DNA from: Alphaproteobacteria bacterium
GTDB taxonomy: Bacteria > Pseudomonadota > Alphaproteobacteria > UBA9219 > RFNS01
Length of the DNA: 64,000 nt
Direction: 5' to 3'
Assembly: GCA_016124955.1 (NCBI GenBank)
Contig: WGMR01000009.1
Location: 62,001-126,000, forward strand
Shown here: one piece after another, positions 1,253 through 20,273 of the stretch
Position numbering within the stretch: position 1 is the stretch's first letter
Layout: the number at the start of each line of letters is the position of its first letter
Notes under the pieces: model-generated
The model's input: the letters and a program-made list of their open reading frames with translations, nothing else
What the model was told of the DNA's origin: nothing
Database searches by the model: none
Translations under genes and position numbers: made by a program

Positions 1253-1273
1253 CAACAGGACGGGAACAAACAA

Positions 1274-4340: not shown

Positions 4341-4370
4341 AACCCAGGAAAGACAAAGGAGAAAAAGACA

Positions 4371-4766: not shown

Positions 4767-4789
4767 AGGGCAAGCCAGCCGCGGATGGC

Positions 4790-4825
4790 GGGGGAAGGGG
4801 CCTATGTGCCCCTTCCCCCTTTTTA
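4790..4825 (+). terminator. intrinsic terminator after the capsid genes
   Basis: A perfect 12-base-pair G/C-rich stem (left arm 4790-4801, right arm 4808-4819, six-base loop) followed by a run of T. It lies between two structural genes, so it probably reduces transcription past the capsid block, leaving the capsid transcript more abundant. The next gene's ribosome site starts about 15 bases after the T run. Confidence 0.85.
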
Positions 4826-4850
4826 TTTTCCAACATTGCAAGGGGGTATC

Positions 4851-5210
4851 ATGCGTACCACTGTCGTTAATCTGCTCGATAACCTGCCGGTGACGATCGC
4901 CAGCGGGCAATCGATCACGTCCGATCTCAATCTCGGCGGCCTGCGCCTGTTCGGCATCGTCATGCCCGCAAGCTGGACCGCCGCCAACCTGACCTTCCAG
5001 TCCAGCCACGATTACGGCATCACCTGGAACAATGTTTATGACAAACAGGGCACCGAATATAACATTACCGCCGCGGCTGCGCGTTTCATCCTGATCGACC
5101 CGGTCGATTTCGCTTCGCTGCAATATCTGCGCTTGCGTAGCGGCACTTCGGGCACGCCGGTCAACCAGGCAGCCGACCGCACCGTCAATTTCGTTCTGCG
5201 TTCGATCTAG
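4851..5210 (+). CDS. hypothetical phage structural protein
   Basis: A 119-residue protein. The ATG at 4851 is chosen because AAGGGGG precedes it at a good distance; an in-frame start at 4785 would run through the terminator hairpin. It has alternating beta-strand character, with LFGIVMPASWTAANLTFQSS and an IDPVDFASLQYLRLRSG segment resembling the end of the protein encoded at 4371-4766 (YVRALMTVTSGTSG). The two may be distant relatives, for instance two decoration proteins. Function unknown. Confidence 0.65.
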   Translation: MRTTVVNLLDNLPVTIASGQSITSDLNLGGLRLFGIVMPASWTAANLTFQSSHDYGITWNNVYDKQGTEYNITAAAARFILIDPVDFASLQYLRLRSGTSGTPVNQAADRTVNFVLRSI

Positions 5211-5223
5211 GCGGCCCGGCGTG

Positions 5224-7796: not shown

Positions 7797-7820
7797 ACGC
7801 CGAGACAAAGGAAAGAAACA

Positions 7821-8459
7821 ATGCCATCGCTTGAACTTGTAACAGCGCCTGCCAGCGAACCCGTGACGCTGGCCGAGGCCAAGACCCATTTGCGCGTTGA
7901 AGCAACCGCCGACGACAGTTTTATCACCGCGCTGATTGCCGCCGCCCGGCAATGGGCCGAAGAACATACCGGGCGCGCGCTGATCAGCCAGACATGGCGT
8001 TTGTGGCTCGATTGCTGGCCCGGCATGAACGAACAATGGTGGGATGGCGTGCGTGACGGGCCTGCAAGCGGCCTTACGGCTGCGCGCGCGATCAGCCTGC
8101 CGCGCGCGCCGCTGATATCGATCAGCACCGTAAAAACATATGACGATAACGACGATGCCACGGTATGGGACGCCGCGAATTATTTTGCCGACACCGCAAG
8201 CCAGCCCGGGCGCATTGCGCTGCGCAACGCGGCCACCTGGCCGCAGCCGGTACGGGAGACCGGCGGCATCAGCATAGAATATGTGGCCGGGTATGGCGCG
8301 GCCGCCGCCAACGTGCCCGAAGCCGTGCGTACCGCATGCCGGCAATTGGTGGCGCACTGGTACGAACACAGAGGCGAGGCGGGCGGCAGGATCGCACCCG
8401 CGCCGCTGACGGTGCAGGCGTTGCTCGGTCCGTATCGTATTTTGCGGGGGCGGCTGTGA
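7821..8459 (+). CDS. head-tail connector, phiE125 gp8 / GTA gp6-like
   Basis: A 212-residue protein. It begins with the family signature VTAPASEPVTLAEAKTHLRV and continues DDSFITALIAAARQWAEEHTGR, typical of gp6-like connectors that extend the portal. The C-terminal part has ISIEYVAGYG and an EAVRTACRQLVAHWYEHR helix. A strong AAGGAAAG ribosome site precedes the ATG. It overlaps the following adaptor gene (GTGA). Confidence 0.9.
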   Translation: MPSLELVTAPASEPVTLAEAKTHLRVEATADDSFITALIAAARQWAEEHTGRALISQTWRLWLDCWPGMNEQWWDGVRDGPASGLTAARAISLPRAPLISISTVKTYDDNDDATVWDAANYFADTASQPGRIALRNAATWPQPVRETGGISIEYVAGYGAAAANVPEAVRTACRQLVAHWYEHRGEAGGRIAPAPLTVQALLGPYRILRGRL

Positions 8460-8776
8460 TCGGGGCCATGCGCGCGCGCATCACGTTGCAGCAGGAAACG
8501 CAAACGGGGGATGGCGCGGGCGGCTATCAGCTCGGCTGGCAGGACGTGGCCACCTTGTGGGCCGAGGTCGAGCCGTTGCGCGGCCGTGAAGTTTATATCG
8601 CCGACCGGCCGGAAAGCCGCGTTACGCACCGCATGACGATCCGCTACCGCAGCGATATTACGCACCGCATGCGCGTGAGCCATGACGGGCGTTTGTTCAA
8701 TATCCGCGCCGCGATTAATGCCGACGCGCGCAAGCGTTTCACGCAACTGTTCGTGGAAGAAGGGGGCAGCACATGA
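8456..8776 (+). CDS. phage head-tail adaptor (SPP1 gp16 / GTA gp7-like)
   Basis: A 106-residue head-closure protein. The GTG at 8456 is preferred because it yields (M)IGAMRARITLQQ, matching the family start, and overlaps the upstream stop (GTGA). An ATG at 8468 is the alternative. Mid-region ATLWAEVEPLRGREVYIADR and TIRYRSDITHRMRVSHDGR are family signatures. It joins head and tail during assembly. Confidence 0.88.
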   Translation: MIGAMRARITLQQETQTGDGAGGYQLGWQDVATLWAEVEPLRGREVYIADRPESRVTHRMTIRYRSDITHRMRVSHDGRLFNIRAAINADARKRFTQLFVEEGGST

Positions 8777-8817
8777 GCGCAGCGATTGGGATAATAAGAT
8801 GAGCGCGGCGATTGGGA
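8773..8817 (+). repeat. imperfect 19-base direct repeat before DUF3168
   Basis: A 19-base unit starting ATGAGCGC and ending GATTGGGA occurs at 8773-8791 and again at 8799-8817 with one mismatch. The next gene also begins ATGAGCG, at 8825. The repeats carry aborted starts (ATGAGC...) and probably arose by slippage around the ribosome site; they may tune translation of the DUF3168 gene. Confidence 0.6.
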
Positions 8818-8824
8818 GAGCGGC

Positions 8825-9235
8825 ATGAGCGACGCCATGTTTGCGGTGCAGGATGCGGTCTATGATTTGCTCGCGGCCGACGGCACGGTGCAGGGCGCGC
8901 TCGGTGATCCCGCGCGCATCTACGATCATGTGCCGCCCGAAGCGACCTTTCCCTTCCTGACGCTCGGCGATACCGACGCCGAAATTTACGATAGCAAGAA
9001 CCTGACCGGCATGACGCAGGTGATATTGCTGCATGCCTGGTCGCGTTATCGCGGCAGGAAAGAGATCAAGGATATTTTGCAGGCGCTTTACGGCGCGCTG
9101 CACAACGCTTCGCTGAGCGTAAGCGGCGCGAGCTTCGTTTCATGCCGGTTTGAAAGCGCTTCGCTGCTGATCGACGACGACGGCATGACATACCACGGGC
9201 TTGCGCGCTATCGCGTGATCACGGAACAAACCTGA
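8825..9235 (+). CDS. DUF3168 tail-completion protein (GTA gp8-like)
   Basis: A 136-residue protein. It shows the DUF3168 pattern: VQDAVYDLLAADGTVQGAL near the N terminus, then ARIYDHVPPEATFPFLTLGD and a central VILLHAWSRYRGRKEIKDI. The family sits at the head-tail joint and ends the tail tube. The stop overlaps the next ATG by one base. Confidence 0.9.
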   Translation: MSDAMFAVQDAVYDLLAADGTVQGALGDPARIYDHVPPEATFPFLTLGDTDAEIYDSKNLTGMTQVILLHAWSRYRGRKEIKDILQALYGALHNASLSVSGASFVSCRFESASLLIDDDGMTYHGLARYRVITEQT

Positions 9236-9600
9236 TGGCAAACGTGAATTTCCGCAGCTTTGTGCGCAGCTACCGCGCGCCGCGTTCCGGCCGCCGCTAT
9301 TTGCCGCGCAGCCGCAGCGGCGCGGAGGCGGACAGCCTTGAAGCCGTTGCGGCGCGGCTCGAGCGGCAACTGACGCAGCAGGTTTTGCGCAATGTCAGCC
9401 GCCAGATTTTCGACGGCGCGCTCGGTGGCGGGGTCAGCCAAGGCGTGGCGCGCGGCAACAGCGCCCGGCCCTTTACCGGGGCGGCGGAAACCGTGCTCGG
9501 CGGGTTGCTTGGCCTGCCGCGCGGGCAAAACTGGCTGGCGCAGGGGCAGGTAATCGGTAACCTTTACCGTTCGTTGCAGCAATCTTTCCGGTGGCTGTAA
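9235..9600 (+). CDS. hypothetical phage protein (position of tail genes)
   Basis: A 121-residue basic protein with an Arg-rich N terminus (RSYRAPRSGRRYLPRSRSG), an amphipathic middle helix, and a Gly/Ala-rich C terminus. No family recognised. It occupies the place where major tail, tail chaperone and tape-measure genes are expected, but it is far too short for a tape measure and lacks tail-tube motifs. It could be a remnant of the tape measure C-terminal end or an unrelated minor protein. It is coupled to DUF3168 by a one-base overlap. Confidence 0.6.
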   Translation: MANVNFRSFVRSYRAPRSGRRYLPRSRSGAEADSLEAVAARLERQLTQQVLRNVSRQIFDGALGGGVSQGVARGNSARPFTGAAETVLGGLLGLPRGQNWLAQGQVIGNLYRSLQQSFRWL

Positions 9601-9602
9601 AT

Positions 9603-9815
9603 ATGATCGACGAAAGACTGACCCTGCTGCACCGGCGCGCAGACGCGCACACACGCGGGCGTTCGCGTCATACAGTCACCGACCCCAAGCTTCTGCGCGC
9701 CATAGACGCGATTGAGAAGTATCTGGGCGGGAGGCCGGACAAGATGTTCCGAAATCCTGACGGTAAGTGGAAGCCATCCGGCAAAGAAGCAAGGTATCCC
9801 TTTAAAGAGGAATAG
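9603..9815 (+). CDS. cassette 1: truncated toxin-like protein
   Basis: A 70-residue protein homologous to the C-terminal part of cassettes 2 and 3. It keeps LLRAIDAIEKYLGGRPDKMFRN and the ending GKWKPSGKEARYPFKEE. Aligned with cassette 3, exactly 35 residues (105 bases, in frame) are missing between FRN and the GKW tail, including the His-rich PHKEPHFH core. The KYNP...GQWT linker is also absent. It is therefore probably inactive. ATG 9603 is just after the upstream stop; a GTG at 9591 is less likely. The partner gene follows after five bases. Confidence 0.65.
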   Translation: MIDERLTLLHRRADAHTRGRSRHTVTDPKLLRAIDAIEKYLGGRPDKMFRNPDGKWKPSGKEARYPFKEE

Positions 9816-9820
9816 CAGAG

Positions 9821-10054
9821 ATGAAGTGGGTTGCTGACATTAAACGGTCTGGAAAAATAGCGCGATGCGAGATAGAGCGTCAGCTGTTAACCAGCTTAAC
9901 CTCGAATGTGTCCGATCAATTTGGCTACTATCTTTATGTTTGGGAAAATGAAGGCGATGCCCATGACTATCTCCAAGACACACCTGAAATAGCGATGGCT
10001 CAGGCTTTCGAAAATTTTGGCGTGCCGCTGGATGCCTGGAAGAAAGTGGAGTGA
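9821..10054 (+). CDS. cassette 1: immunity-like small protein
   Basis: A 77-residue protein beginning MKWVADIK and ending VPLDAWKKVE. It is nearly identical in plan to the products at 13830-14063 (77 residues) and 11639-11842 (67 residues): CEIE, then GYYLYVWEN, then LQDT-E-A--A--F. The LQDT...A...F.V...W pattern resembles small partner proteins found beside polymorphic toxins. It always directly follows the toxin-like frame. The immunity role is inferred from this one-to-one pairing. Its base composition is AT-richer than the phage genes around it. Confidence 0.68.
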   Translation: MKWVADIKRSGKIARCEIERQLLTSLTSNVSDQFGYYLYVWENEGDAHDYLQDTPEIAMAQAFENFGVPLDAWKKVE

Positions 10055-10065
10055 GGAGCGCACAT

Positions 10066-10376
10066 AAATAATTTATTGCTTGAATGAATTGGCGGGCCGT
10101 CTTGCGACCCTTTTTTGTTTGCCATACACCGGTTATCCCATGAAAACCATCTCCGCGCTGCTGCACTGCCAAGCGCATGCACCGGCCGGGAAGGTGGTTG
10201 AAGTTACTCTCTCACCCGCATGGCCGGCGCCTTTCTGCGCTTCGTTGCCGCGGGATGAGGTTACTAAGGAAATTTTGCAAGTGAGCAGGGTGTCTGCACC
10301 GGCTGCACCGGCTGCACCGCGCGATGCGCGATTTCATTTATCGTTTCAATAAACCAGCAAAATCCGGAAAACAGAC
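10066..10376 (+). other. non-coding scar: chimera of DUF2163 5' end and NlpC/P60 3' end
   Basis: Roughly 320 bases lie between the cassette 1 partner gene and DUF2460. The first part copies the flank of cassette 2: the terminator, then CCCATGAAAACCATC, which is the start of the DUF2163 gene (11917-11931). After a shared CTGCA it continues as a copy of the NlpC/P60 gene end (CCGGCCGGGAAGGTGGT, also at 13109-13125). Further right is a CTGCACCGG short tandem repeat at 10294-10319. A 90-codon frame runs through it but is an accidental fusion, not a gene. It looks like the remains of a duplication followed by a deletion. Confidence 0.75.
10094..10116 (+). terminator. terminator-like hairpin after cassette 1
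   Basis: A GGGCCG / CGACCC stem with one C-A mismatch and a five-base loop, followed by six T. It is a decayed copy of the perfect hairpin after cassette 2 (11874-11896). Confidence 0.6.
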
Positions 10377-11003
10377 ATGTCCTTCGATGAAGTGCAGATG
10401 CCGTTGCGCGTGGGTTTCGGCTCGGCCGGCGGGCCCGGCTTTTCGACCGAAGTTATCGTGATCGACGGCGGCTATGAGCGCCGCAACCAGAACTGGTCGC
10501 AGGCGCGCCGCCGCTATGACGCGCGCACGGGGCTGCGCACCGGGGTCGATGCTGCCGCGCTGCTCGGGTTCTTTCATGCCCGCGCCGGGCGCGCGCGCGG
10601 CTTCCGGCTGAAGGACTGGAGCGATTTTTCATCGGCAACGGACGGCACGGACACGAGCGCCTGGAGCGACCAGACCATCGGCACCGGCGACGGCACGGCA
10701 ACGCAATTCCAGCTTGTAAAGAACTACGCAAGCGGCACGGTCACGCATACGCGCCGGATACGCAAGCCCGTAAGCGGCAGCGTGAGCGCGGGCACGAACG
10801 GCACGCAGGCCGCGAGCGGCTGGTCGGTTGATATCACGACCGGCATCGTTACCTTTGCTGCCGCGCCAACGGCGGGGCATGCGGTGACCGCGGGTTTTCT
10901 GTTCGATGTGCCCGCGCGCTTCGATACCGACGTGCTTTCGCTCACGGCCGAAGATTTCATCAGCTACAACAGCGCGATCCCGATCGTGGAGATCAGGGTG
11001 TGA
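10377..11003 (+). CDS. DUF2460 tail protein (GTA gp12-like)
   Basis: A 208-residue protein with the DUF2460 signature: SFDEVQMPLRVGFGSAGGPGF, then IVIDGGYERRNQNWSQARRRYDARTG, and further on FFHARAGRARGFRLKDW. The end reads ARFDTDVLSLTAEDF...IPIVEIRV. It belongs to the distal tail of GTA-type particles. Its stop overlaps the GTG of cassette 2 (GTGA). Confidence 0.93.
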   Translation: MSFDEVQMPLRVGFGSAGGPGFSTEVIVIDGGYERRNQNWSQARRRYDARTGLRTGVDAAALLGFFHARAGRARGFRLKDWSDFSSATDGTDTSAWSDQTIGTGDGTATQFQLVKNYASGTVTHTRRIRKPVSGSVSAGTNGTQAASGWSVDITTGIVTFAAAPTAGHAVTAGFLFDVPARFDTDVLSLTAEDFISYNSAIPIVEIRV

Positions 11004-11635
11004 ACAGGGGTGGCGTGAACATGCCGGGGCCGGATGACTGGCTCGCGGCGCTGCACCGGCGCGCACACGCGCTGGCGTTCGCGGTATATCTGAAGAAGAG
11101 CTTTATTTCTCCGCATCTGCGCGCGCTGGTGGAGGCCACCGCTTCGCGCGAAGCGTTGATGAAGTACAACCCGAATTGGGAGGCGCGCCCGCGGGCAGCC
11201 CCGGCGGCGGGCAATGGACCGACGGCGGCGGGGGGCGCGGGAAGGCCGGGAGAAGCAAACCCCTACCCGGATGCGATCACGCCGCTGATTCCGGACGGGG
11301 ATGCCGTGCTTATCCTTTCCGCGCTGCCTGCCGGCAGGGCGCTGCAGATTGCGCGGATTTTTCTGCAGCCGCTTGCCCGGCCCGCCGCCGACCGGAAGCT
11401 TCTGCGCGCCATTGACGCGATAGAGAAATTTTTGGGTGGTTCGGGTATGGCTCGGCGGAACAAGGCCGGGGATATATTTATTATAAGGGGCGACAAAAAG
11501 ATAAGGTTTGATATAAATAAAACCTTTCCACACAAAGAACCCCATTTTCACATTGAAAAAATGATAAAGAATGGAAAGCAAACAGATTGGGTGCCCGCTG
11601 GGAGAAAACACTGGTATCCCTTCAAGAAGGAGTAA
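11000..11635 (+). CDS. cassette 2: toxin-like protein with scrambled linker
   Basis: A 211-residue protein. An N-terminal helical segment ends in KYNPNWEARP. The next twenty or so residues (RAAPAAGNGPTAAGG) are the standard GNPGGGQWTDGG linker read in the wrong frame; the correct linker is intact one frame over (around 11176-11235). The frame then returns to NPYPDAITP and the C-terminal domain DRKLLRAIDAIEKFLGG ... RFDINKTFPHKEPHFH ... YPFKKE. So the linker carries two compensating indels, one a ten-base loss. The C-terminal half is strikingly AT-rich. It starts at a GTGA overlap, or at ATG 11021. The toxin role is inferred from architecture; the domain family is unidentified. Confidence 0.68.
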   Translation: MNRGGVNMPGPDDWLAALHRRAHALAFAVYLKKSFISPHLRALVEATASREALMKYNPNWEARPRAAPAAGNGPTAAGGAGRPGEANPYPDAITPLIPDGDAVLILSALPAGRALQIARIFLQPLARPAADRKLLRAIDAIEKFLGGSGMARRNKAGDIFIIRGDKKIRFDINKTFPHKEPHFHIEKMIKNGKQTDWVPAGRKHWYPFKKE

Positions 11636-11638
11636 GCC

Positions 11639-11842
11639 ATGAAGTGGCTGGCAGATATAAAATTACCCGGTAAGACCGTGCGCTGTGAAATTGAGTATGA
11701 TGAGTTAGCGGGATATTATCTTTACGTTTGGGAAAACGACAAAGGCATCACAGACGAATTGCAGGATACCTTTGAATCCGCTGCCCGTCGTGCCCGAGAT
11801 CTTTTTCAGGTGCCGCTGGATGCTTGGAGGAAAGTGGAGTAA
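11639..11842 (+). CDS. cassette 2: immunity-like small protein
   Basis: A 67-residue homolog of the cassette 1 and 3 partner proteins, about ten residues shorter in the segment between CEIE and GYYLYVWEN. A strong AAGAAGGAG ribosome site sits on the end of the toxin-like gene, three bases from its stop. It ends VPLDAWRKVE. Likely cytoplasmic, acidic, binding its cognate toxin; this is inferred from pairing. Confidence 0.68.
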   Translation: MKWLADIKLPGKTVRCEIEYDELAGYYLYVWENDKGITDELQDTFESAARRARDLFQVPLDAWRKVE

Positions 11843-11872
11843 GGGGCGGCCGTAATATTTTGAATGATTTGA

Positions 11873-11896
11873 CGGGCCGTTTTGCGGCCCTTTTTT
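11873..11896 (+). terminator. intrinsic terminator after cassette 2
   Basis: A perfect GGGCCG/CGGCCC stem (11874-11879 with 11885-11890), five-base loop and six T. It sits 23 bases before the DUF2163 start and insulates the tail gene from the cassette, so DUF2163 would depend on read-through or antitermination. Confidence 0.8.
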
Positions 11897-11919
11897 GTTT
11901 TCCACACACCGGCTGTCCC

Positions 11920-12768
11920 ATGAAAACCATCCCCGCGCCGCTGCAGGATCATCTGAACGGCGAGCTGACAACGCTTGCCACGCTCGTGAAGGTCACGCGC
12001 CGCGACGGCGCGGTGAAAGCGTTCACGACGCACGACCGCGATATCGCGCTCGGCGGCGTTACATACCTTGCCGACGGCGCGCTTTCGCCGAGCGCAATCG
12101 AAAGCCGCGCCGGGCTGGCTTCGGGCAACCTCGATATCGCGGGCATGCTCGATAGCGCCGCGATCAATGGCGAAGATATCAAGGCCGGGCTTTATGACCA
12201 TGCGCGGGTGGATATATATGTGTGCAACTGGGCCGCGCCCGCCGACGGCGCGGTGCAGCTGCGCCGCGGCTGGCTTGGCGAGGTCACGCTTTCGGGCGGG
12301 CAATATGTGGCGGAGCTGCGCGGTCTGCATGATTTGCTGCAGCGGGAGATCGGCGATTACGTGACGCCGGAATGCCGCCATGATCTTGGCGACGCGCAAT
12401 GCGGCGTGGATACAGGGGCCATAACAGTGAACGGCACCGTGACGGGCGTGACCGGCGACGCCGTATTTACGGACAGCGGGCGCAGCGAGGCTGACGAAAC
12501 ATTTGCCTATGGCAAGCTGACATGGACCGGCGGCGCCAATACAGGGCTTGCGATGGAGGTGAAGGCGTGGGACGGCGCGGCGCGGCAATTCACGCTCTGG
12601 CTGCCCATGCCGCACGGCGTGCAGGCGGGCGATACTTATAGTGTGTATCCCGGCTGCGACAAGCGGCTCGCGACCTGTTCGGCCAAATTCAGTAACGTTG
12701 CGAACTTCGGCGGCTTCCCGCATCTGCCGGGCATCGACCGGCTTTTGCAGTACCCGGACAGTAAATAA
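11920..12768 (+). CDS. DUF2163 tail protein (GTA gp13-like)
   Basis: A 282-residue protein. ATG 11920 (MKTIPAPLQDHLNGELTTLA) is chosen because it matches the family start; the longer frame from 11824 runs through the terminator. Signatures include VTRRDGAVKAFTTHDRDI, the EVTLSGGQYVAELRGL segment, a CRHDLGDAQCGVD Cys pair and a late YPGCDKRLATCSAKFSNVANFGGFPHLPG. Part of the distal tail baseplate of GTA-type tails. Confidence 0.93.
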   Translation: MKTIPAPLQDHLNGELTTLATLVKVTRRDGAVKAFTTHDRDIALGGVTYLADGALSPSAIESRAGLASGNLDIAGMLDSAAINGEDIKAGLYDHARVDIYVCNWAAPADGAVQLRRGWLGEVTLSGGQYVAELRGLHDLLQREIGDYVTPECRHDLGDAQCGVDTGAITVNGTVTGVTGDAVFTDSGRSEADETFAYGKLTWTGGANTGLAMEVKAWDGAARQFTLWLPMPHGVQAGDTYSVYPGCDKRLATCSAKFSNVANFGGFPHLPGIDRLLQYPDSK

Positions 12769-12771
12769 AAC

Positions 12772-13203
12772 ATGGAAGACAATTTCGCCGCGCGCGTGAT
12801 TGCGGCCGCGCGCGCATGCGCCGGCACGCCCTTTCATCATCAGGGCCGGGCGCCGGGCGCCGGGCTTGATTGCATCGGGCTTGTCGTGGTCGCGCTGCGC
12901 GCCGCGGGCAAGGATGTGCGCGACCGCACCAATTACGGCCGCAGGCCGGACGGGCGCGGGCTTGTCGCCGCGCTGGAAAGCCACGGCTTTGCGCCGCGCG
13001 CGGACAAAAACGCGCAAGCGGGGGATATTTTATTGTTCCGTTTCGATAGCCAGCCGCAGCATGTGGCGCTGGCGACCGGGCCGGGCGGCATGCTGCACGC
13101 CTATGCCCCGGCCGGGAAGGTGGTCGAGGTTACGCTTTCGCCCGCCTGGCGCAGCCGGCTGCTGGGGGTTTGGAGTTTGCATGACGGAAACCGGGAAGTT
13201 TGA
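12772..13203 (+). CDS. NlpC/P60 cell-wall peptidase (GTA gp14-like)
   Basis: A 143-residue tail-associated peptidase. The catalytic Cys is in GLDCIGLVVVAL and the His in QHVALATGPGGMLHAYAP. It likely cuts peptidoglycan during DNA entry. It begins four bases after DUF2163 and its end overlaps the next out-of-phase frame by 23 bases. A fragment of its 3' end is duplicated at about 10190-10215. Confidence 0.92.
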   Translation: MEDNFAARVIAAARACAGTPFHHQGRAPGAGLDCIGLVVVALRAAGKDVRDRTNYGRRPDGRGLVAALESHGFAPRADKNAQAGDILLFRFDSQPQHVALATGPGGMLHAYAPAGKVVEVTLSPAWRSRLLGVWSLHDGNREV

Positions 13204-13426
13204 AGGCGAGCTGGCCGCGCTGCGCCGCGATATCGCTGCCAAGGCGGCGCGACTGGCCGCCGCCTATGATCGCTGTTGCGGCGCCGTGCCGGAACTTGTG
13301 CAGGATATTGTGGCCTACACGGCGCGCGCCGCGAAATACAACCCGGATTGGGAAGCGCAGCCGCGCGTGCCCGGGGGCAACCCCGGCGACGGGCAATGGA
13401 CCGACGGCGGCGGGCTTGCCCGGTGA
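13181..13426 (+). CDS. cassette 3: N-terminal linker half of split toxin-like gene
   Basis: An 81-residue frame, MTETGKFEGELAAL..., helical and Ala-rich, ending KYNPDWEAQPR ... GGNPGDGQWTDGGGLAR. The KYNP-W...PRVP-GNP-GQWTDG linker is the one seen in cassettes 2 and 4. The stop codon at 13424 separates it from the C-terminal half in another frame. It overlaps the NlpC/P60 end by 23 bases. Either it is made separately or it is the front of a frameshifted gene. Confidence 0.58.
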   Translation: MTETGKFEGELAALRRDIAAKAARLAAAYDRCCGAVPELVQDIVAYTARAAKYNPDWEAQPRVPGGNPGDGQWTDGGGLAR

Positions 13427-13827
13427 ATTATGTGCCGGAAGGCAGCGCGCCGGAAGAAACAAACCCGTACCCGGATGCGATCACGCCTGTGTACCCGCTT
13501 GAAGCGGCGCTGACGGCTTTGGTGACCCCGGAAGCTGTAATTGTTGGCCGCGCACTCATCGCGGCGGGTAGGGCCCACATCACGAACCGTAAGCTGTTAC
13601 GCGCCATTGACGCCCTAGAGAAATATTTGGGTGGGAGGCCGGACAAGATGTTCCGAAACTTTTCCGGTGATCTGGTGATCATAAAACGTGACAGGCAAAT
13701 CAGGTTTGATATAAATAATCACTATCCTCATAAAGAACCGCATTTTCACGTATTGAAGCAACGGCCAAATGGCAAATGGAGGCCAGCTGGCAGAGAACAG
13801 AGATATCCTTTCAAAGGGGAAGAGTGA
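13423..13827 (+). CDS. cassette 3: C-terminal toxin-like domain
   Basis: A 134-residue frame beginning at a GTG that overlaps the upstream stop (GTGA), as do cassettes 2 and 4. It carries NPYPDAITP, LLRAIDALEKYLGGRPDKMFRN, then the complete core IRFDINNHYPHKEPHFHVLK and the tail WRPAGREQRYPFKGEE. The HKEPHFH core resembles small nuclease-type toxin domains, but I cannot name the family. It may be produced by re-initiation at the GTGA, in which case it is the only cassette with an intact core separate from its linker. The partner gene follows after two bases. Confidence 0.62.
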   Translation: MNYVPEGSAPEETNPYPDAITPVYPLEAALTALVTPEAVIVGRALIAAGRAHITNRKLLRAIDALEKYLGGRPDKMFRNFSGDLVIIKRDRQIRFDINNHYPHKEPHFHVLKQRPNGKWRPAGREQRYPFKGEE

Positions 13828-13829
13828 AA

Positions 13830-14063
13830 ATGAAATGGGTTGCTGACATTAAGGGCCATGAAAAAGTTGCGCGGTGCGAGATAGAGCGCCAGCTATTGAC
13901 CAGCCTAACCAAAAATGTGCCCGATCAATTCGGTTATTATCTTTATGTATGGGAAAACGGAGGGGATGCCCATGATTATATGCAAGACACACTTGAGATA
14001 GCCATAGAACAGGCTTTTGAAGATTTCAGTATTCCCAAGAGCGCTTGGAAGAAGGTTGAATAA
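13830..14063 (+). CDS. cassette 3: immunity-like small protein
   Basis: A 77-residue close paralog of the cassette 1 partner: MKWVADIKGHEKVARCEIE ... GYYLYVWENGGDAHDYMQD ... SAWKKVE. It starts two bases after the toxin-like stop. Differences between the copies cluster in the LQDT...A helix and the last ten residues, as expected if each has diverged with its own partner. Confidence 0.68.
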   Translation: MKWVADIKGHEKVARCEIERQLLTSLTKNVPDQFGYYLYVWENGGDAHDYMQDTLEIAIEQAFEDFSIPKSAWKKVE

Positions 14064-14142
14064 ATAATATCCCCCCCCTGCGCTTTTTTGTCGCGGCGTG
14101 ACTGCATAAATTTCCCGATTTTGTAAAAACCCGGGCATAACC

Positions 14143-17100
14143 ATGGCATCCATCCTTCTCAGCACCGCCGGCAATGCGCTTGCGCCCGGCATCGGCGGAT
14201 CCTTGTTCGCGCTCGCGGGCGGAGCTTTGGGCTCGGTCATCGACCGGCAGATTTTCGGCTTTTCCGGCCCGCGCATCGAAGGGCCGCGGCTTGAAAATCT
14301 GAAAGTGCAGGATTCGCGCTACGGCGCGGGCATCCCGCTTGCGTGGGGGCGCGTGCGCGTCGCGGGCAACGTGATCTGGTCTTCCGACCTGATCGAGGCG
14401 CGGCACGAGGAGCAATCGGGCGGCGGCAAGGGCGGCTTCGGCGCTTCATCTTCCGTCACCACCGTGCGTTACAGCTACAGCGTGAATTGCGCGGTGGCGG
14501 TTTGCGCCGGGCCGGTGCAGGAAATCACCGCCGTGTGGGCCGACGGCAAACTTGTTTATGACGGCGGCGGCTGGAAGGCGGGGCTGGCGGCCAGTGCGGG
14601 CATTTATACCGGCACGGCGGCGCAGACGCCCGATGCGGTGATGGAAGCCGCACTGGGCGCGGGCAATGTACCGGGCTATCGCGGGATCGCCTATATCGTT
14701 TTCGAAGGCCTGCAGCTGGCCGATTTCGGCAACCGCATCCCCAATCTGACCTTCGAAGTGCTGGCGAGCGCCGCCGACCCCGCGCCCGTGTGGGACGGCG
14801 AGGCTGCGCCGGCACTTTCAACCTCGGTCATTTCGCTGCATTCGCATCAGGGCAACCCGCCGCTGCGCATCGCGGGCGACAGCACGCGCACCACGCGGCT
14901 GATCGTGGGCGGGTATGTCAACCCGGGCGCGAGCTGTCAGTACCAGGTTGTGGAATATGACGTGACCGGCACCGCGCCGGCCCTTGCGGCGCGCACATCT
15001 TCGGACGCCTTCGCAAGTTCGGCCGAGTTGTATGACCATAGCTGGGGCATGGCGCCGGACGGGCGCTATGCCGCGATCCTCGCGCTGAATGACGACGGCA
15101 CCGGCAATGTGATGATTTATGACAGCGCGCTGCGTATTTTCGGCGCGCCCGTCGCCGTTACGTTGACCGGCGCGCTGCGCCAGATCGCCTGGATCGGGCC
15201 GCTGCATTTCGTTTTAAGCGAGGTTTCCGGCGGCGTGCGCGGCGTGCGGCTTTTTATGCGCGCGGGGTTGGGGATCATTGACCTCGGGTTCAGCCCGGTT
15301 TGGGGCGCAGGTTCCGATACTTCGCGCCCGACCGTCGGGCATGCGCAGTTCATCCCGGCGCAGGACGGCTTGCTGTTCATGACCGGCAATAGCAGCTTCA
15401 GCCCGACTGCGCTTTATCTTTGCCATATCAGGCTGGCGGGCAATGCGGTGGCTGCGGGTGCGCCCTATACGCTAAGCGCGAGCGTGCCTTCGGGCAGCGC
15501 GGCGCAAACCAGTTTGCTCGATCTCGGTGGCGGAGAGACGCTGCTGACGTTCAGCCTTACATTCGATGCGCGCGTGCTTTCGTTTCGCGCCGACGCCGCG
15601 GGCGCCACGATCACGCGCGGCTGGACTTCGCTCGGCTACCCCACCGGGGCTGAAAACTGTACGCCGGAATTGTTGGGCCCGTCGCGGCTTCTGCTGATCG
15701 TGCGTTTTGCCACGGAAAGCAATTATCGCATCCTTGAAGCCACCATCGGCGATAGCGGCTTTACGCTGCTTTCATCGGAAGGCGAGATTGTCGGCGGCTA
15801 TGAGGCGGCGGTCGATTCCCACCTTTGCGTGCGGATCGACCATAATCGCTTGGCGTTGCAAGACGGCGCCTATTCAACCGACATGACCTCCGCGCTCGGG
15901 CTCATCACGCGCTCGGGCGGCGGCGACACCTTGCAGAATGTGGTGGATGCAATTCTTGACCGCGCCGGCTATGACGCGGCCGATTACGATACCGACGCGC
16001 TGGCGGATGAAACGCTTGCGGGATATGTTTTACCCGGGCCGCTGACGGCGCGCGATGCGATCGAACCGCTGCGCAGCTACCGCCCGTTCGATCTGGTGGA
16101 AAGCGGCGCCAGCCTGCGCGCGGATTTGCGCGGCGGGACGGCGGGTGAAACCGTGCCGGACAGCGAGCTGCGCGCCGCCGAAGACGACGACGAACCCCCG
16201 CCCGCGCTGGAACAGGTGCGGCGGCAGGAGCTTGATTTACCGGCCGAGGTTACTGTCGATCATATCGACCCGGCACGCGCCTATGAAATCGGCAGCCAGC
16301 GCGCCAGGCGCATCACCGGCGCGGCGCAGGCCGTGAAAAAACTGGCGCTGCCGGTCGTGTGCGATGCCGCAGCGGCCAAGCAGGTGGCGGAAACCACGCT
16401 TTTTGCCGCATGGGCGGAGCGCGACATGGTGAAGTTCCGCGCCACGCGGAAATATTTGACGCTCGAGCCCGGCGATGTGGTGAGCGTGGGCGGGCGCACC
16501 GCGCGGCTTACGCTTGTGCGCCAGCGCGGCGGCATGGTGGAAGCCGAAGGTTTGCTCGTGAGCGCGGACGCCTATGCCAGCGCGGCGGTGGCCGAAGGCG
16601 GCGAGGCGGCGCAGCGGCGCGATGTGGCGGCTGTGCCTTCCTACGCTTTCCTGATGGATTTGCCCCTGTTGACCGACAATGACGATCAGCCGGGAATGTA
16701 TGCCGCGATTTCCGGCGCCGCCGGCTGGCCGGGCGGCGCGCTGTGGCGTGCGCCCGACACGGGCACGGGCGGCGTGGATTTTGCCGCGATTTCCGGCTTT
16801 CCGCTGTCGGCGGCGGCCGGCGCGGCGGCGGATGTTCTGGCGGACGCGCCCGCACATTATATGGACCGGGCCGGAAGCGTGACCGTGCAGCTTTTTCAGG
16901 GCACGCTTTCGAGCTGCAGCGAAACCGCGTTGCTCGACGGCGGCAATGCCGCGCTTTTGGGCGACGAGATAATACAGTTCCAGACCGCGACGCTGGCGGG
17001 GCCGGGGCTTTATACGCTGACGAACCTTTTGCGCGGCAGGCGTGCGACCGGCTGGGCTTCGGCATCGCACACGGCGGGCGAACGTTTCGTGCTTTTGCAG

Positions 17101-17568
17101 CAGAACAGCACACAGTTTTTGCCCGCGCAGCTTTCCGATCGCGGACGGACATACCAGTTCCGCGCGCTTTCGACCGGGCAAAGCCTCGGCGACGTGCAGG
17201 ATACCGCCTTTACCTATGGTTTGCGCACGATCGAACCTTTTGCGCCCGCGCATCTGGCGGGCACGCGCGCAGACGGCCCCGGCGGCGATTTGACCATCAC
17301 CTGGAAGCGCCGCGCGCGGCTCAATGCCGCATGGGTAGATGAAATTGACGTGCCGCTGGACGAGGCGGAGGAGCTTTACGATATCGAGATCATGGACGGT
17401 ACGGACGTGAAGCGCGCCTTCAGCGTTTCCGGCACGTCGGCGAAGATCTATAGCGCGGCCGAGCAAACGGCGGACTGGGGCACGGCCGTGCCCGCCAGCT
17501 TCACCGTGCGCGCAAGCCAGCGCAGCAACCGTTTCGGCCGCGGGCAGACGGCGGAGGCGGCGCTGTGA
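14143..17568 (+). CDS. large host-specificity / tail-tip protein (GTA gp15-like)
   Basis: A 1141-residue protein. The N terminus (LSTAGNALAPGIGGSLFALAG ... IDRQIFG) and the RLENLKVQDSRYGAGIPLAWGRVR block are typical of the GTA gp15 / phage tail_3 family. Residues about 225-600 look like a repeated beta-propeller-like region rather than the expected TIM barrel. The C-terminal half resumes the family plan: PVVCDAAAAKQVAETTLFAAW and YTLTNLLRGRRATGWA. It forms the tail tip and recognises the host. The stop overlaps cassette 4's GTG (GTGA). Confident family, uncertain middle domain. Confidence 0.88.
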   Translation: MASILLSTAGNALAPGIGGSLFALAGGALGSVIDRQIFGFSGPRIEGPRLENLKVQDSRYGAGIPLAWGRVRVAGNVIWSSDLIEARHEEQSGGGKGGFGASSSVTTVRYSYSVNCAVAVCAGPVQEITAVWADGKLVYDGGGWKAGLAASAGIYTGTAAQTPDAVMEAALGAGNVPGYRGIAYIVFEGLQLADFGNRIPNLTFEVLASAADPAPVWDGEAAPALSTSVISLHSHQGNPPLRIAGDSTRTTRLIVGGYVNPGASCQYQVVEYDVTGTAPALAARTSSDAFASSAELYDHSWGMAPDGRYAAILALNDDGTGNVMIYDSALRIFGAPVAVTLTGALRQIAWIGPLHFVLSEVSGGVRGVRLFMRAGLGIIDLGFSPVWGAGSDTSRPTVGHAQFIPAQDGLLFMTGNSSFSPTALYLCHIRLAGNAVAAGAPYTLSASVPSGSAAQTSLLDLGGGETLLTFSLTFDARVLSFRADAAGATITRGWTSLGYPTGAENCTPELLGPSRLLLIVRFATESNYRILEATIGDSGFTLLSSEGEIVGGYEAAVDSHLCVRIDHNRLALQDGAYSTDMTSALGLITRSGGGDTLQNVVDAILDRAGYDAADYDTDALADETLAGYVLPGPLTARDAIEPLRSYRPFDLVESGASLRADLRGGTAGETVPDSELRAAEDDDEPPPALEQVRRQELDLPAEVTVDHIDPARAYEIGSQRARRITGAAQAVKKLALPVVCDAAAAKQVAETTLFAAWAERDMVKFRATRKYLTLEPGDVVSVGGRTARLTLVRQRGGMVEAEGLLVSADAYASAAVAEGGEAAQRRDVAAVPSYAFLMDLPLLTDNDDQPGMYAAISGAAGWPGGALWRAPDTGTGGVDFAAISGFPLSAAAGAAADVLADAPAHYMDRAGSVTVQLFQGTLSSCSETALLDGGNAALLGDEIIQFQTATLAGPGLYTLTNLLRGRRATGWASASHTAGERFVLLQQNSTQFLPAQLSDRGRTYQFRALSTGQSLGDVQDTAFTYGLRTIEPFAPAHLAGTRADGPGGDLTITWKRRARLNAAWVDEIDVPLDEAEELYDIEIMDGTDVKRAFSVSGTSAKIYSAAEQTADWGTAVPASFTVRASQRSNRFGRGQTAEAAL

Positions 17569-18104
17569 GCATGCATGCTATGCGCAGGATGATGCTGCGC
17601 TTTACGCCGCTATTGCGCGAAGCGCGGACGGCGCTGGCCGCAAAATACAACCCGGATTGGGAAGCGCAGCCGCGCGTGCCCGCGGGCAACCCCGGCGGCG
17701 GGCAATGGACTGATGGAGAAGCAATAGTTGATGTTAACGGGCCGGGCGCAGAAAATTCGTTGCTTGATATTTATGTTGATGACTGCCCCTAGATCCCGCC
17801 ATTGCGCCCTGGGAGCTGTTGTTGATAAATGACAGGGTTAGAACAATTCTGGGTTTTGTCTTCAGCCGTGCTGCCGGTAAACCTTATTATACAATAGGCA
17901 AACAAAGATATTCTTCCCATGCTCTTGGTCAAATGGAAGCGAGGGGGTATTCCGCCATCAGTGGTCACAAATGCTATCAAGCAGGGCGCGGCGAGACGAT
18001 CTTTCAACAATGCAACGACTTATTATGATAAAATAAACAATGTTACGGTTGTTGTTGGCAATACGACCAGACAGGTAGTAATGGTGAGGAAGGGATCTCC
18101 GTGA
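17565..18104 (+). pseudogene. cassette 4: DUF4258-like toxin gene with two frameshifts
   Basis: The front frame (17565-17792) has LAAKYNPDWEAQPR, the intact GNPGGGQWTDGE linker, then stops. The continuation is found one frame over from 17783 (LDPAIAPWELLLINDRVRT ... SSHALGQMEARG) and then back in the first frame (IPPSVVTNAIKQG ... YYDKINNVTVVVGNTTRQVV). The joined C terminus has the DUF4258 plan: a HAL-RM-like helix, RGI---V--AI, then a TYYD-----VVV hairpin. The shifts fall at a C4 run near 17786 and a G5 run near 17944, so sequencing error must be excluded. It starts at a GTGA overlap. Confidence 0.65.
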
Positions 18105-18355
18105 TGCAGGAAGAAAAGGCAAAAGCCGTTCGCCGTATTCTGAACGTTGAGTGGAACCCGGCCGGTATTCCAATACAACCGGACGACGACGAATACGATT
18201 CTTATGTTGCCGTGATTCTACAAAAAAAGTGGAGCCAAACGGAACCGGAGGCTTATCTTGGAAGCCTTGAATATACCATACTGGGTGCAAAGATCGGCAA
18301 GGCAAGACGAGCTGTTGCCGCCAGCGTCGCTGAAAAGATTTTGTCTGTTTTATAG
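18104..18355 (+). CDS. cassette 4: immunity-like protein (DUF1871-like)
   Basis: An 83-residue protein. ATG 18104 overlaps the toxin-like stop by one base. It contains RRILNVEWNPAGIPIQPDDDEYDSYV, close to the WNP-G-----DEYDS pattern of DUF1871-type small proteins, followed by an amphipathic C-terminal helix. It is unrelated to the partners in cassettes 1-3, matching the unrelated toxin-like domain before it. The immunity role is inferred. AT-rich compared with the neighbouring phage genes. Confidence 0.66.
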   Translation: MQEEKAKAVRRILNVEWNPAGIPIQPDDDEYDSYVAVILQKKWSQTEPEAYLGSLEYTILGAKIGKARRAVAASVAEKILSVL

Positions 18356-18409
18356 CCGTCTGTATTTGTGAATAACAGCCGCTCTTAACCCGCGGAACAC
18401 CCCATCCCC

Positions 18410-18442
18410 GCCGCACCGGCCTTCGCCGGCGCGGCTTTTTTT
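18410..18442 (+). terminator. intrinsic terminator after cassette 4
   Basis: An 11-base-pair GC stem (18410-18420 with 18425-18435, one mismatch) closed by a CTTC loop, followed by seven T. It lies between the cassette and DUF2793; the next ribosome site begins only a few bases later. Confidence 0.85.
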
Positions 18443-18461
18443 GTTGCAGAAGGAGGCAGAC

Positions 18462-19055
18462 ATGGCCAACACACCCACTATCGCGATGCCCTATCTGGTG
18501 GCTTCGCAGGTGCAGAAGGAAGTGACGCACAACGATGCGTTGAACGACCTCGATTTCACTGCGCAGGCTTCCGCGCATGACCGCGATCTGAATGCGCCGC
18601 CGGGTTCGCCCGCGCAAGGCGATTGCTATGTGATCGGCCCTTCGCCCAGCGGCGCATGGAGCGGCAGTGCGGGCGCGCTCGCGGGTTATTATTCCGGCTG
18701 GCGCATCAAAACGCCTTCGGCCGGCTGGCGCGCATGGCTGCGCGACGAAGGCAGGCTGGCTTATTACACCGGCAGCGGCTGGGGCAACCTCGCGACGCCG
18801 TTCCTTGAAGGCGCGGCCACGTGGGACCCGGCCAACCTCGCGGACGGCGCGGGGGAAACTTCCGCCGCCATCACCGTGACGGGCGCCGCCTTCGGCGATT
18901 TTGCGTTCGCGGCCGCGCCCTATGACCTGCAGGGCATTACCTGCACCGCCTATGTTTCGGCCGCCGATACGGTGCGCATTCGCATACAGAACGAAACCGG
19001 CGGCGCGATCGATCTCGCTTCCGGCGCATGGAAAGTGCGGGTCATCAAGCAATGA
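18462..19055 (+). CDS. DUF2793 phage protein
   Basis: A 197-residue protein with the DUF2793 signature: TPTIAMPYLVASQVQKEVTHNDALN, then PPGSPAQGDCYVIGPSPSGAWSG and YYSGWRIKTPSAGWRAWL. A perfect AAGGAGG precedes ATG 18462. The family is common at the end of alphaproteobacterial prophage tail modules, probably as a fiber or tail-associated protein. It overlaps the next gene (ATGA). Confidence 0.9.
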   Translation: MANTPTIAMPYLVASQVQKEVTHNDALNDLDFTAQASAHDRDLNAPPGSPAQGDCYVIGPSPSGAWSGSAGALAGYYSGWRIKTPSAGWRAWLRDEGRLAYYTGSGWGNLATPFLEGAATWDPANLADGAGETSAAITVTGAAFGDFAFAAAPYDLQGITCTAYVSAADTVRIRIQNETGGAIDLASGAWKVRVIKQ

Positions 19056-19366
19056 AAAGCGGCATAAAGACGAAGATGAAATCGTTCGATCAGGCGGTGC
19101 GCGGCGGCTGGCACCTTGACAGGCGCGTTCCCTTGGCGCTGATCCTCGCCATTATTTTGCAAACCTTTACCGCCGTGTGGTGGGCCAGTGCGCAGGCGCA
19201 GCTCAATGATTTTCAGGATACGCATCTCGGCCGGCTCGATATCCAGCTGGAAAAGGCCGCCGCCGGGCAGGAGCTTTCCGGCGTTCGCCTCGCCCGGATC
19301 GAGGAGCGCGTGGGCGCGGTGCAGGAAACCTTGCAGCGCATCGAAAAAAACCTCGGGCGGCGATGA
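19052..19366 (+). CDS. small membrane protein of the lysis module
   Basis: A 104-residue protein with one strong membrane helix (VPLALILAIILQTFTAVWWASA, about residues 26-47) and a C-terminal coiled coil (ARIEERVGAVQETLQRIEK). ATG 19052 overlaps the DUF2793 stop, and its own stop overlaps the endolysin start (ATGA). Position suggests a pinholin, spanin-like or holin-accessory role, which is not proven. Confidence 0.72.
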   Translation: MKSGIKTKMKSFDQAVRGGWHLDRRVPLALILAIILQTFTAVWWASAQAQLNDFQDTHLGRLDIQLEKAAAGQELSGVRLARIEERVGAVQETLQRIEKNLGRR

Positions 19367-19854
19367 TGGACGGCACATTCGCTGCTTCCGGTACCCATGC
19401 CGCCGAAATTTTTCCGCGGCGCGCGAATGAAGCCGGGATTGCCCTGATCAGGGAATTCGAAGGGCTGCGGCTTGAAGCCTATCTTTGTCCGGGCGGGATT
19501 TTTACCGTGGGCTACGGCCACACCAGAAGCGCGCGCGCGGGCATGAAGATCACGCGCGATCAGGCCGATGCGCTGCTCGATGCCGATTTGCGCGTGTACG
19601 AACATGCGGTGGCGCGGCATGTTCTGGTGCCGCTGACCGACAACCAGTTCGCCGCGCTTGTAAGCTTCACCTTTAACGTCGGCATCACGAACTTCATCGG
19701 CTCCAAGCTTTTGCGGCTTTTAAACCGGGGCTGGTACGAACAGGTGCCGGCGCAGCTATCGCGCTGGGTGCATGCGCGCGGCGAGGCGATGGGCGGGCTG
19801 GCGCGGCGGCGGCGGGCCGAAGCGATGTTGTGGAATACGCAGGACCGGGCATGA
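19363..19854 (+). CDS. endolysin, GH24 lysozyme
   Basis: A 163-residue phage lysozyme that cleaves the peptidoglycan sugar backbone. The lambdoid catalytic spacing E-x8-C-x5-T is present (EGLRLEAYLC, then T in FTVGYGHT). Further family segments are ITRDQADALLDADL and LVSFTFNVG. No signal peptide is seen, so release depends on the holin. Overlaps both neighbours by four bases. Confidence 0.93.
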   Translation: MMDGTFAASGTHAAEIFPRRANEAGIALIREFEGLRLEAYLCPGGIFTVGYGHTRSARAGMKITRDQADALLDADLRVYEHAVARHVLVPLTDNQFAALVSFTFNVGITNFIGSKLLRLLNRGWYEQVPAQLSRWVHARGEAMGGLARRRRAEAMLWNTQDRA

Positions 19855-20273
19855 TCGGCATCGATAACGCGATCGGGCTGGGCGTTACGGCGCTGGCCCG
19901 GCTGTTTGACCGCCTGATCCCCGACCCGGTCGCGCGTGAAGCGGCCAAGGCCGCGCTTTTGCGGGAAGAAAACCGGCAGGCGCTGGAGGAAATGCAGGCT
20001 TCGCTTTCCGCCATCCTTGCCGAGGCGAACAGCGCCGACCCGTGGACCAGCCGCGCGCGCCCCACCTTTCTTTATGTCATTTATATCATGATATTGATGT
20101 GCGTGTTCGGCGCCATCGTCGGCATTTGGTATCCGGGCGAGGTGTTCCAGGCTTCGGAAAACCTGAACCGGCTTTTGAAGGCTATTCCGGGCGAGCTGTA
20201 CAGCCTTTTTGCCGTCGGGTATCTGGGCTACACCGGCGCGCGCAGCATTGATAAATGGCGGGCGGGGAAATAG
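19851..20273 (+). CDS. holin, GTA 3-TM family
   Basis: A 140-residue protein. ATG 19851 overlaps the endolysin stop (ATGA). It has the 3-TM GTA-release holin plan: an N-terminal helix, an ENRQALEEMQASLSAI linker, WTSRARPTFLYVIYIMILM, and a last helix LFAVGYLGYTGARSIDKW. It permits endolysin escape. It is the last phage gene; the convergent pheA stop lies only four bases away. Confidence 0.9.
   Translation: MIGIDNAIGLGVTALARLFDRLIPDPVAREAAKAALLREENRQALEEMQASLSAILAEANSADPWTSRARPTFLYVIYIMILMCVFGAIVGIWYPGEVFQASENLNRLLKAIPGELYSLFAVGYLGYTGARSIDKWRAGK

What the first reader, a model, noticed from the sequence alone, without database searches (positions are those of the whole stretch)
9603..18355. 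Four toxin/immunity-like cassettes inserted between GTA-type tail genes
Seen: four gene pairs sit at successive tail-gene junctions (after the 9235-9600 gene, after DUF2460, after NlpC/P60, after gp15-like). Cassettes 2-4 share the linker KYNP-W-A-PR ... GNP-G-GQWTDG. Cassettes 1-3 share one C-terminal domain and one partner family; cassette 4 has a different domain (DUF4258-like) with a different partner. The C-terminal parts are much AT-richer than the phage genes. Three of them start at GTGA overlaps, and cassettes 1, 2 and 4 are followed by terminator-like hairpins. Known: polymorphic toxins swap C-terminal domains behind a fixed linker and carry adjacent immunity genes. Inference: this is a phage- or GTA-borne polymorphic toxin array that may travel with, or protect users of, the particle.
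Basis: partly seen in the sequence, partly recalled or inferred. Interest (0 to 1): 0.9.

Follow-up and report, generated by a model that had tools for sequence, protein, structure and literature searches.

The report
Toxin cassettes on a gene-transfer particle
A virus-like gene cluster that most relatives of this bacterium share carries swappable toxin and antidote gene pairs of a kind that some relatives fuse directly to the particle's DNA gateway, which suggests that particles thought of as gene couriers may also be weapons, although most copies in this genome look broken.

Summary
The four cassettes are real polymorphic toxin/immunity modules, but this array is mostly degraded. Toxin domains and partners have 43-48% GC behind a ~70% GC module and linker in c2 and c3. 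The domain of cassettes 1-3 (R-D, PHFH, W) occurs with its partner in the same 7 of 96 genomes. In a Simkaniaceae genome it ends an RHS-repeat protein, with a homologous partner beside it. In one relative two cassettes share 260/264 N-terminal nt but differ in C-termini. Some relatives put linker and toxin on the phage portal itself, including portal plus Colicin_E5. The cluster is GTA-like; a close portal is in 27 of 33 order members. Corrections: c1 lacks the toxin core; c2 reads its linker partly out of frame; c3 and c4 are split between frames; DUF4258 in c4 was not confirmed. All four partners are open. A fossil of a fifth, colicin-E5-like cassette lies at 10251-10286. Closest known kind: MuF phage toxins; the GTA-like carrier and the portal fusions look new. 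Delivery by particles is inferred, not shown.

The parts
5..20273 (+). GTA-like structural cluster (terminase, portal, prohead protease, capsid, connector, tail terminator, DUF2460, DUF2163, NlpC/P60, gp15-like, DUF2793, lysozyme) that hosts the cassettes
   Evidence: close portal in 27 of 33 order genomes
9591..9815 (+). Cassette 1: remnant of module plus toxin domain; linker and toxin core absent
9821..10054 (+). Cassette 1 partner (immunity-like, 77 aa), open; 79% identical to the c3 partner, dN/dS about 0.09
10080..10224 (+). Duplicated fragments: 10080-10165 like 11860-11945 (terminator plus DUF2163 start), 10170-10224 like 13096-13150 (NlpC/P60 end)
10251..10286 (+). Fossil end of a colicin-E5-like cassette: 12 of 12 residues identical to the toxin end in G006 (L036)
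11000..11635 (+). Cassette 2: helical module, linker region (partly out of frame) and complete toxin domain (11396-11632) in one ORF
11639..11842 (+). Cassette 2 partner (immunity-like, 67 aa), open
11874..11890 (+). Terminator-like hairpin followed by a T run
   Evidence: overall count of such sites not above chance
13181..13426 (+). Cassette 3 module plus linker ORF (81 aa), overlapping the NlpC/P60 gene end
13423..13827 (+). Cassette 3 toxin domain ORF, complete domain, in a different frame from its linker
13830..14063 (+). Cassette 3 partner (immunity-like, 77 aa), open
17565..17792 (+). Cassette 4 linker ORF
17819..18104 (+). Cassette 4 C-terminal region, split over two frames (17819-18028 and 17919-18104); no family assigned
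18101..18355 (+). Cassette 4 partner (84 aa), open; no relative found

Best explanation
The cassettes are polymorphic toxin/immunity modules carried by a GTA-like head-tail cluster. SHOWN by sequence: a constant part (a module of about 50 residues plus a KYxP..PR..G.GGQWT linker, or the portal protein plus the same linker) is joined to exchangeable toxin domains, followed by a small partner gene; in the order most such cassettes lie beside GTA-type genes; toxin domains and partners show mostly synonymous differences, yet several copies have broken frames. INFERRED: the constant part ties the toxin to the portal or the inside of the capsid, so the particle carries it out of the lysing producer; a recipient with the matching partner survives and keeps the delivered DNA, one without it is inhibited (by an RNase or, less surely, a peptidoglycan-cleaving domain). 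Likely effects are killing of non-kin and gene exchange restricted to kin. In this genome only cassette 2 could still make a linked toxin as read, whereas all four partner genes are open, so here the array would mainly give immunity.
For: Toxin and partner occur in the same 7 of 96 genomes, adjacent (chance 8e-11 if genomes were independent, which related genomes are not). The toxin domain ends an RHS-repeat protein (168 bits) in a Simkaniaceae MAG, with a partner scoring 84 bits against a profile that did not contain it; a second relative of the domain sits in an RHS array on a Protochlamydia plasmid. Colicin_E5 above cut-off behind the module (25.2 and 36.3 bits against 25) and on a portal (36.6). 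Two cassettes with 260/264 identical N-terminal nt and different C-termini. 15 of 18 module/linker places in the order are beside GTA-type genes. Portal-linker-toxin in one 624-aa frame. GC boundary inside the c2 ORF. dN/dS 0.09 (partners c1/c3) and 0.12 (toxins c2/c3), rough because synonymous sites are near saturation. A CHAP-like cassette (below Pfam cut-off) has a partner that looks by eye like a lipoprotein, which suits periplasmic ejection as described for RcGTA (PMC7296036, passages).
Against: No toxicity, binding or particle data. Three of four window cassettes (c1, c3, c4) cannot make a linked toxin as read. No match in the own genome to a relative's major tail protein, so the particle itself may not work. 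RcGTA ejects DNA into the periplasm, while RNase toxins need the cytoplasm. In the class most linker places are not near these structural genes (16 of 28 not near, 10 near, 2 not fetched), so the linker itself is not a particle signal. 25 of 33 order genomes have no module/linker match. The Protochlamydia neighbour gene is not of the partner family.
Confidence: 0.66

Rival explanations
1. Intracellular toxin-antitoxin or anti-phage modules that merely settle in a tolerated, transcribed region; they stabilise the cluster or block infection and never leave the cell.
For: The c3 toxin ORF is separate from its linker. PIN/VapB-like and HigBA-like modules, recognised by eye and not by a family search, also sit inside clusters of G032 and G011. 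Solitary toxin/partner pairs lie away from recognised cluster genes in G006:C28 and G014:C23.
Against: Conserved N-terminal module and linker; direct fusion to the portal; RHS carrier of the same domain; partners that look by eye like lipoproteins or secreted proteins, odd for a purely cytosolic module.
Confidence: 0.15
2. The module-linker proteins are ordinary virion or assembly proteins that have picked up toxin domains which are now dead cargo; the array is a decaying relic without present function.
For: c1 core lost, c3 and c4 split, linker of c2 partly out of frame; frame-broken portal-toxin in G005 and L124; fossil fifth cassette; 25 of 33 order genomes have no module/linker match.
Against: Toxin c2/c3 and partner c1/c3 differences are mostly synonymous; 11 cassettes in other genomes of the order are single open frames; an intact portal-toxin exists in a contig nearly identical to the broken one; all four window partners are open.
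Confidence: 0.12
3. The cluster is an ordinary mobile prophage and the cassettes are MuF-type phage toxins.
For: One order member has a MuF-domain protein that begins with the same module. MuF toxins are known phage capsid toxins (PMC5576092, passages and discussion). The flanks are not the same everywhere: the window's upstream neighbour gene was absent in 5 of 14 order loci with 2 kb or more upstream of terminase, and pheA absent downstream in 6 of 10 order genomes whose loci pass the cluster end; in G002 terminase and portal lie far apart.
Against: No MuF domain in the own genome and 1 of 33 in the order. Close portal in 27 of 33 genomes. The same upstream neighbour in 9 of 14 order loci and the same downstream pheA in 4 of 10 genomes, from two other families. 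No match of the c2 protein or of an E5-type cassette in 50,697 phage records, and none of 2,062 portal-matching records covers 80% of the fusion.
Confidence: 0.07

Closest known systems
MuF polymorphic toxins of temperate phages (PMC5576092; Apk2 and Bxa in PMC11699363)
   Same: Toxin C-terminus on a capsid/portal-associated N-terminus, small downstream immunity gene, proposed loading into the head; Bxa was shown to be antibacterial and neutralised by adjacently encoded proteins (passages read).
   Different: No MuF domain in the window. The carrier is a GTA-like cluster present across an order, not a temperate phage. Several cassettes at different junctions, and in relatives direct fusion to the portal.
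RHS / general polymorphic toxin systems (PMC3482391)
   Same: Exchangeable C-terminal toxin domains behind fixed N-termini, immunity arrays; the very same toxin domain ends an RHS protein in Simkaniaceae.
   Different: Different carrier and, by inference, different export route.
RcGTA, Rhodobacter capsulatus gene transfer agent (PMC7296036)
   Same: Portal, HK97 protease and capsid, TIGR02217/TIGR02218-type tail proteins, NlpC/P60, megatron-like gp15.
   Different: Carries toxin cassettes; no major tail protein recognised; the megatron model scores 533.6 bits against a cut-off of 800.
Colicin E5 tRNase domain (PF12106)
   Same: Above cut-off in cassettes of G006 and G025 and on a portal of G051 (G182 has the same protein).
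   Different: Not a bacteriocin gene; in the window only a 12-residue fossil.

Membership tests
Polymorphic toxin systems | Constant N-terminal part with exchangeable C-terminal toxin domains | tested here: met
   L018 pair: 260/264 nt identical N-termini with CHAP-like or DUF4258-like C-termini, both below Pfam cut-off; several C-terminal types behind one module in the order
Polymorphic toxin systems | Cognate immunity gene directly downstream | tested here: met
   Same 7 of 96 genomes hold toxin and partner, adjacent; met for gene arrangement, not for function
Polymorphic toxin systems | Toxin domain shared with other toxin carriers | tested here: met
   RHS-repeat protein in Simkaniaceae; weaker relative in an RHS array on a Protochlamydia plasmid
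Polymorphic toxin systems | Toxicity neutralised by the partner | not testable with these tools
   bench test needed
MuF toxins | MuF domain (PF04233 or relatives) at the N-terminus | tested here: not met
   None in window cassettes or module alignment members; none in own genome, 1 of 33 in the order
MuF toxins | Gene immediately downstream of the portal gene | tested here: not met
   Window cassettes lie at tail-gene junctions; some relatives' cassettes do follow the portal
RcGTA-type gene transfer agent | Characteristic tail proteins TIGR02217 and TIGR02218 | tested here: met
   228 and 244.3 bits, above cut-offs 136.65 and 80.5
RcGTA-type gene transfer agent | Megatron baseplate protein | tested here: inconclusive
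   NF048004 E 1.1e-159, best stretch the C-terminal half, but 533.6 bits against a cut-off of 800
RcGTA-type gene transfer agent | Fixed, vertically inherited chromosomal locus | tested here: inconclusive
   Portal in 28 of 33 genomes, 27 of them close; upstream neighbour gene in 9 of 14 order loci that reach 2 kb upstream, pheA downstream in 4 of 10 genomes that reach past the cluster; no tree was built
RcGTA-type gene transfer agent | Major tail protein | tested here: inconclusive
   A relative's major tail protein matches 7 of 33 genomes, not the own genome; a diverged one cannot be excluded
RcGTA-type gene transfer agent | Packages random host DNA | not testable with these tools
   needs particles
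DUF4258 (cassette 4) | Match to PF14076 | tested here: not met
   No hit on either piece; no similarity clear of shuffles to relatives' DUF4258-like domains; the domain is frame-split, so the test is weak
BECR-fold ribonuclease (toxin of c2/c3) | Fold match | tested here: inconclusive
   Model pLDDT 77.9, helices followed by beta strands; best Foldseek E 0.3, best VIA Z 4.7 to unrelated proteins

The most novel reading that the evidence does not exclude
Armed gene transfer agents: a particle encoded by a resident, GTA-like cluster carries toxin warheads on its portal, so that only recipients with the matching immunity gene survive receipt of DNA. Gene exchange would then be policed by kin recognition, and toxin frames would be switched on and off by short-repeat slippage (as between two near-identical contigs) while immunity is kept.
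Probability: 0.4. Interest if true: 0.92.

Novelty: new variant of a known kind. Interest (0 to 1): 0.78.

Why it matters
Gene transfer agents are usually seen as couriers whose benefit is hard to explain. If they also deliver toxins, they gain a direct selective use (killing non-kin) and a way to keep DNA exchange among relatives. It also adds a second way, next to MuF, of attaching polymorphic toxins to a capsid (portal fusion), and it gives a testable system: a portal with a tRNase domain.

Tried and rejected
Family searches of the window cassettes and partners: no Pfam, NCBIfam or PHROGs match of weight. Sequence search of the PDB with toxin and partner profiles: nothing credible. Fold search of both models: no convincing match; this does not show a new fold. 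c4: no relatives in 240 class genomes or in 72,556 plasmid records, so its toxin type stays open. Idea that the linker marks particle cargo: rejected, since many linker proteins in the class are not near structural genes. Idea that the module is a MuF piece: not shown; it precedes a MuF domain once, but none of 8 module members hits MuF. Idea that terminators insulate each cassette: not above chance in number. Viral-contig scan with the module alignment failed for lack of a conserved stretch and was not repeated. Toxin profile over 398 genomes of the phylum: the own genome and G005 only. Of four flank queries, a small-terminase-like ORF found nothing and cytochrome c was found once (G005). On the second check I lowered the claim of a fixed locus after counting flanks and moved 0.02 from the best explanation to the prophage rival.

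Papers: PMC5576092 passages and discussion; PMC3482391, PMC7296036 and PMC11699363 passages; others search listings only. I saw no paper on toxins fused to GTA portals or borne by GTA clusters in searches; most subscription papers and bioRxiv are not held. MuF searches; RcGTA structure.
Full report
WHAT IS THERE. The region is part of a head-tail gene cluster (terminase at 5 to a gene ending at 20273) of a 1.93-Mb, 99% complete genome. Portal, HK97 protease and capsid, the TIGR02217 and TIGR02218 tail proteins and a megatron-like gp15 are recognised; these are RcGTA-type genes. Four gene pairs sit between tail genes. Toxin domains and partners have 43-48% GC, the module/linker parts of c2 and c3 70% (c4 linker ORF 59.6%), and ten structural genes 59.6-68.5%: in c2 the boundary runs inside one ORF.

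STATE OF THE COPIES. c1 keeps only edges of the toxin domain. c2 is one ORF with a complete toxin domain, but the GQWTDG part of its linker is in another frame than KYNP and the toxin. c3 has module plus linker in one frame and the complete toxin domain in another. c4 has its linker in one frame and its C-terminal part in two. All four partner genes are open. Downstream of c1 lie copied fragments of the c2 terminator/DUF2163 start and of the NlpC end, followed by 12 residues identical to the end of the colicin-E5-like cassette of relative G006: trace of a fifth cassette and of local shuffling. Differences are mostly synonymous between partners c1/c3 (dN/dS 0.09) and toxins c2/c3 (0.12) (synonymous sites are near saturation, so these are rough; the c2/c3 partner pair was too saturated to compute). 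So the domains were kept by selection and the breaks look late. Assembly errors cannot be excluded.

RELATIVES. The toxin domain was found in 7 of 96 genomes including the own one, the partner in the same 7. Residues invariant in the 8 aligned sequences include R-D, PHFH, W and Y-F; with the Simkaniaceae sequence the Y is no longer invariant. A scan of 84,980 species genomes with one pattern gave 6 loci, one of them a Micavibrio sp. MAG (contig of the same length as G017:C7, hence the same order) and one a Simkaniaceae MAG. In the latter the domain is the C-terminus of a long open frame with RHS repeats (168 bits), and the next gene matches the partner profile (84 bits). A weaker relative lies in an RHS array of a Protochlamydia plasmid, with a small neighbour gene that is not of the partner family. 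This makes the domain a polymorphic toxin domain by association. It is rare: besides the own genome and G005, a profile of it matched nothing in 398 phylum genomes.

CASSETTES IN THE ORDER. The module/linker profile matched 8 of 33 genomes, 18 places. 15 lie beside GTA-type genes (3 of them the window's own); 3 do not: G002 at 1818622, G012 at a contig end, and G006:C15, where the module precedes a MuF domain. Junctions used include before terminase, terminase/portal, portal/protease, connector/head closure, before DUF2460, DUF2460/DUF2163, DUF2163/NlpC, NlpC/gp15 and gp15/DUF2793. C-terminal types: the PHFH domain, Colicin_E5 (above cut-off: G006 25.2, G025 36.3 bits against 25), and, below cut-off, DUF4258-like, CHAP-like and Ntox44-like, plus unassigned ones. 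In G017 two cassettes share 260 of 264 N-terminal nt yet have CHAP-like and DUF4258-like C-termini. The CHAP-like one is followed by a partner that looks like a lipoprotein (by eye; no Pfam hit). 11 cassettes in other genomes of the order are single open frames.

PORTAL FUSIONS. In an IMG/VR contig (L123) portal, linker and PHFH toxin form one 624-aa frame. The contig L124 differs by 15 substitutions and 14 gap columns in 12,746 aligned columns, but a 7-nt difference, a copy of a short tandem unit, at the start of its toxin part breaks the toxin and spares portal and partner. G051, outside the order, has portal plus Colicin_E5 (36.6 bits) in one protein; G182 shows the same protein. Portals of G013, G016, G021 and G027 also have C-terminal extensions, the first three with linker-like motifs. 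Of 2,062 phage records matching the L123 portal, none covers 80% of the fusion, and neither the c2 protein nor an E5-type cassette matched 50,697 phage records.

CARRIER. A portal match exists in 28 of 33 order genomes, close (55% identity or more) in 27, of which three have stops inside. The window's upstream neighbour gene lies near the cluster in 9 of 14 order loci that reach 2 kb upstream of terminase; pheA follows in 4 of 10 order genomes whose loci pass the cluster end. In G002 terminase and portal are far apart. This favours a resident, largely inherited element over a freely mobile prophage, but not without exceptions. The major tail protein of G002 has no match in the own genome and matches 7 of 33 in the order. 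25 of 33 genomes have no module/linker match.

BREADTH OF THE LINKER. In 385 class genomes 19 matched, 28 places: 10 near core genes (3 of them the window's own), 16 not near by my profiles (one of these with a single weak connector match at 6e-5; several contigs are short), 2 without wider context. So the linker is shared by several toxin carriers.

MECHANISM. Shown: constant carrier part, exchangeable toxin, adjacent partner, attachment to the portal in several genomes. From literature: RcGTA ejects DNA into the periplasm (PMC7296036, passages) and MuF toxins are proposed to ride in heads, with Apk2 and Bxa reported as antibacterial (PMC5576092, PMC11699363, passages). Inferred: the module or portal places the toxin in the particle; recipients without the partner are inhibited. 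That the portal C-terminus faces the capsid interior is recalled, not from a call. Periplasmic ejection fits CHAP toxins with lipoprotein partners but leaves cytoplasmic entry of RNases unexplained.

MODELS. Toxin pLDDT 77.9, partner 89.0; their fold comparison was not conclusive.

VERDICT. A real, GTA-borne polymorphic toxin array, mostly broken in this genome; a new variant of capsid-borne polymorphic toxins.

Noticed in passing
window 8825-10377: No major tail protein recognised between tail terminator and DUF2460; a 121-aa gene (9235-9600) sits at the tape-measure position. A relative's major tail protein matches 7 of 33 order genomes, none in family f3.
   Followed up: partly
window 5221-7796: A 379-aa gene and a 479-aa gene that looks by eye like a glycosyltransferase lie between capsid-side genes and the head-tail connector; homologues recur in some relatives.
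   Followed up: no
L163 3123-4181; L173 9098-9707: Type II toxin-antitoxin-looking modules (PIN/VapB-like; HigBA-like, by eye) inside the clusters of G032 and G011.
   Followed up: no
L123 and L124: Two nearly identical viral-collection contigs differ in whether the portal-borne toxin is in frame: a possible on/off switch by short tandem slippage.
   Followed up: partly
L036 8886-11106: G006 carries several extra partner genes of two immunity-like families after one E5-type cassette, an orphan immunity array.
   Followed up: partly
L094 1786-2754: A MuF-domain protein whose N-terminal stretch matches the module, near a gene that looks by eye like a lysozyme and away from recognised GTA genes.
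   Followed up: partly
L070, L072, L075, L084, L089: A family of about 400-aa proteins with a conserved non-GTA N-terminus, the same linker and WHH/LHH-motif C-termini in other alphaproteobacteria; Pfam gave no hit on the two scanned.
   Followed up: no
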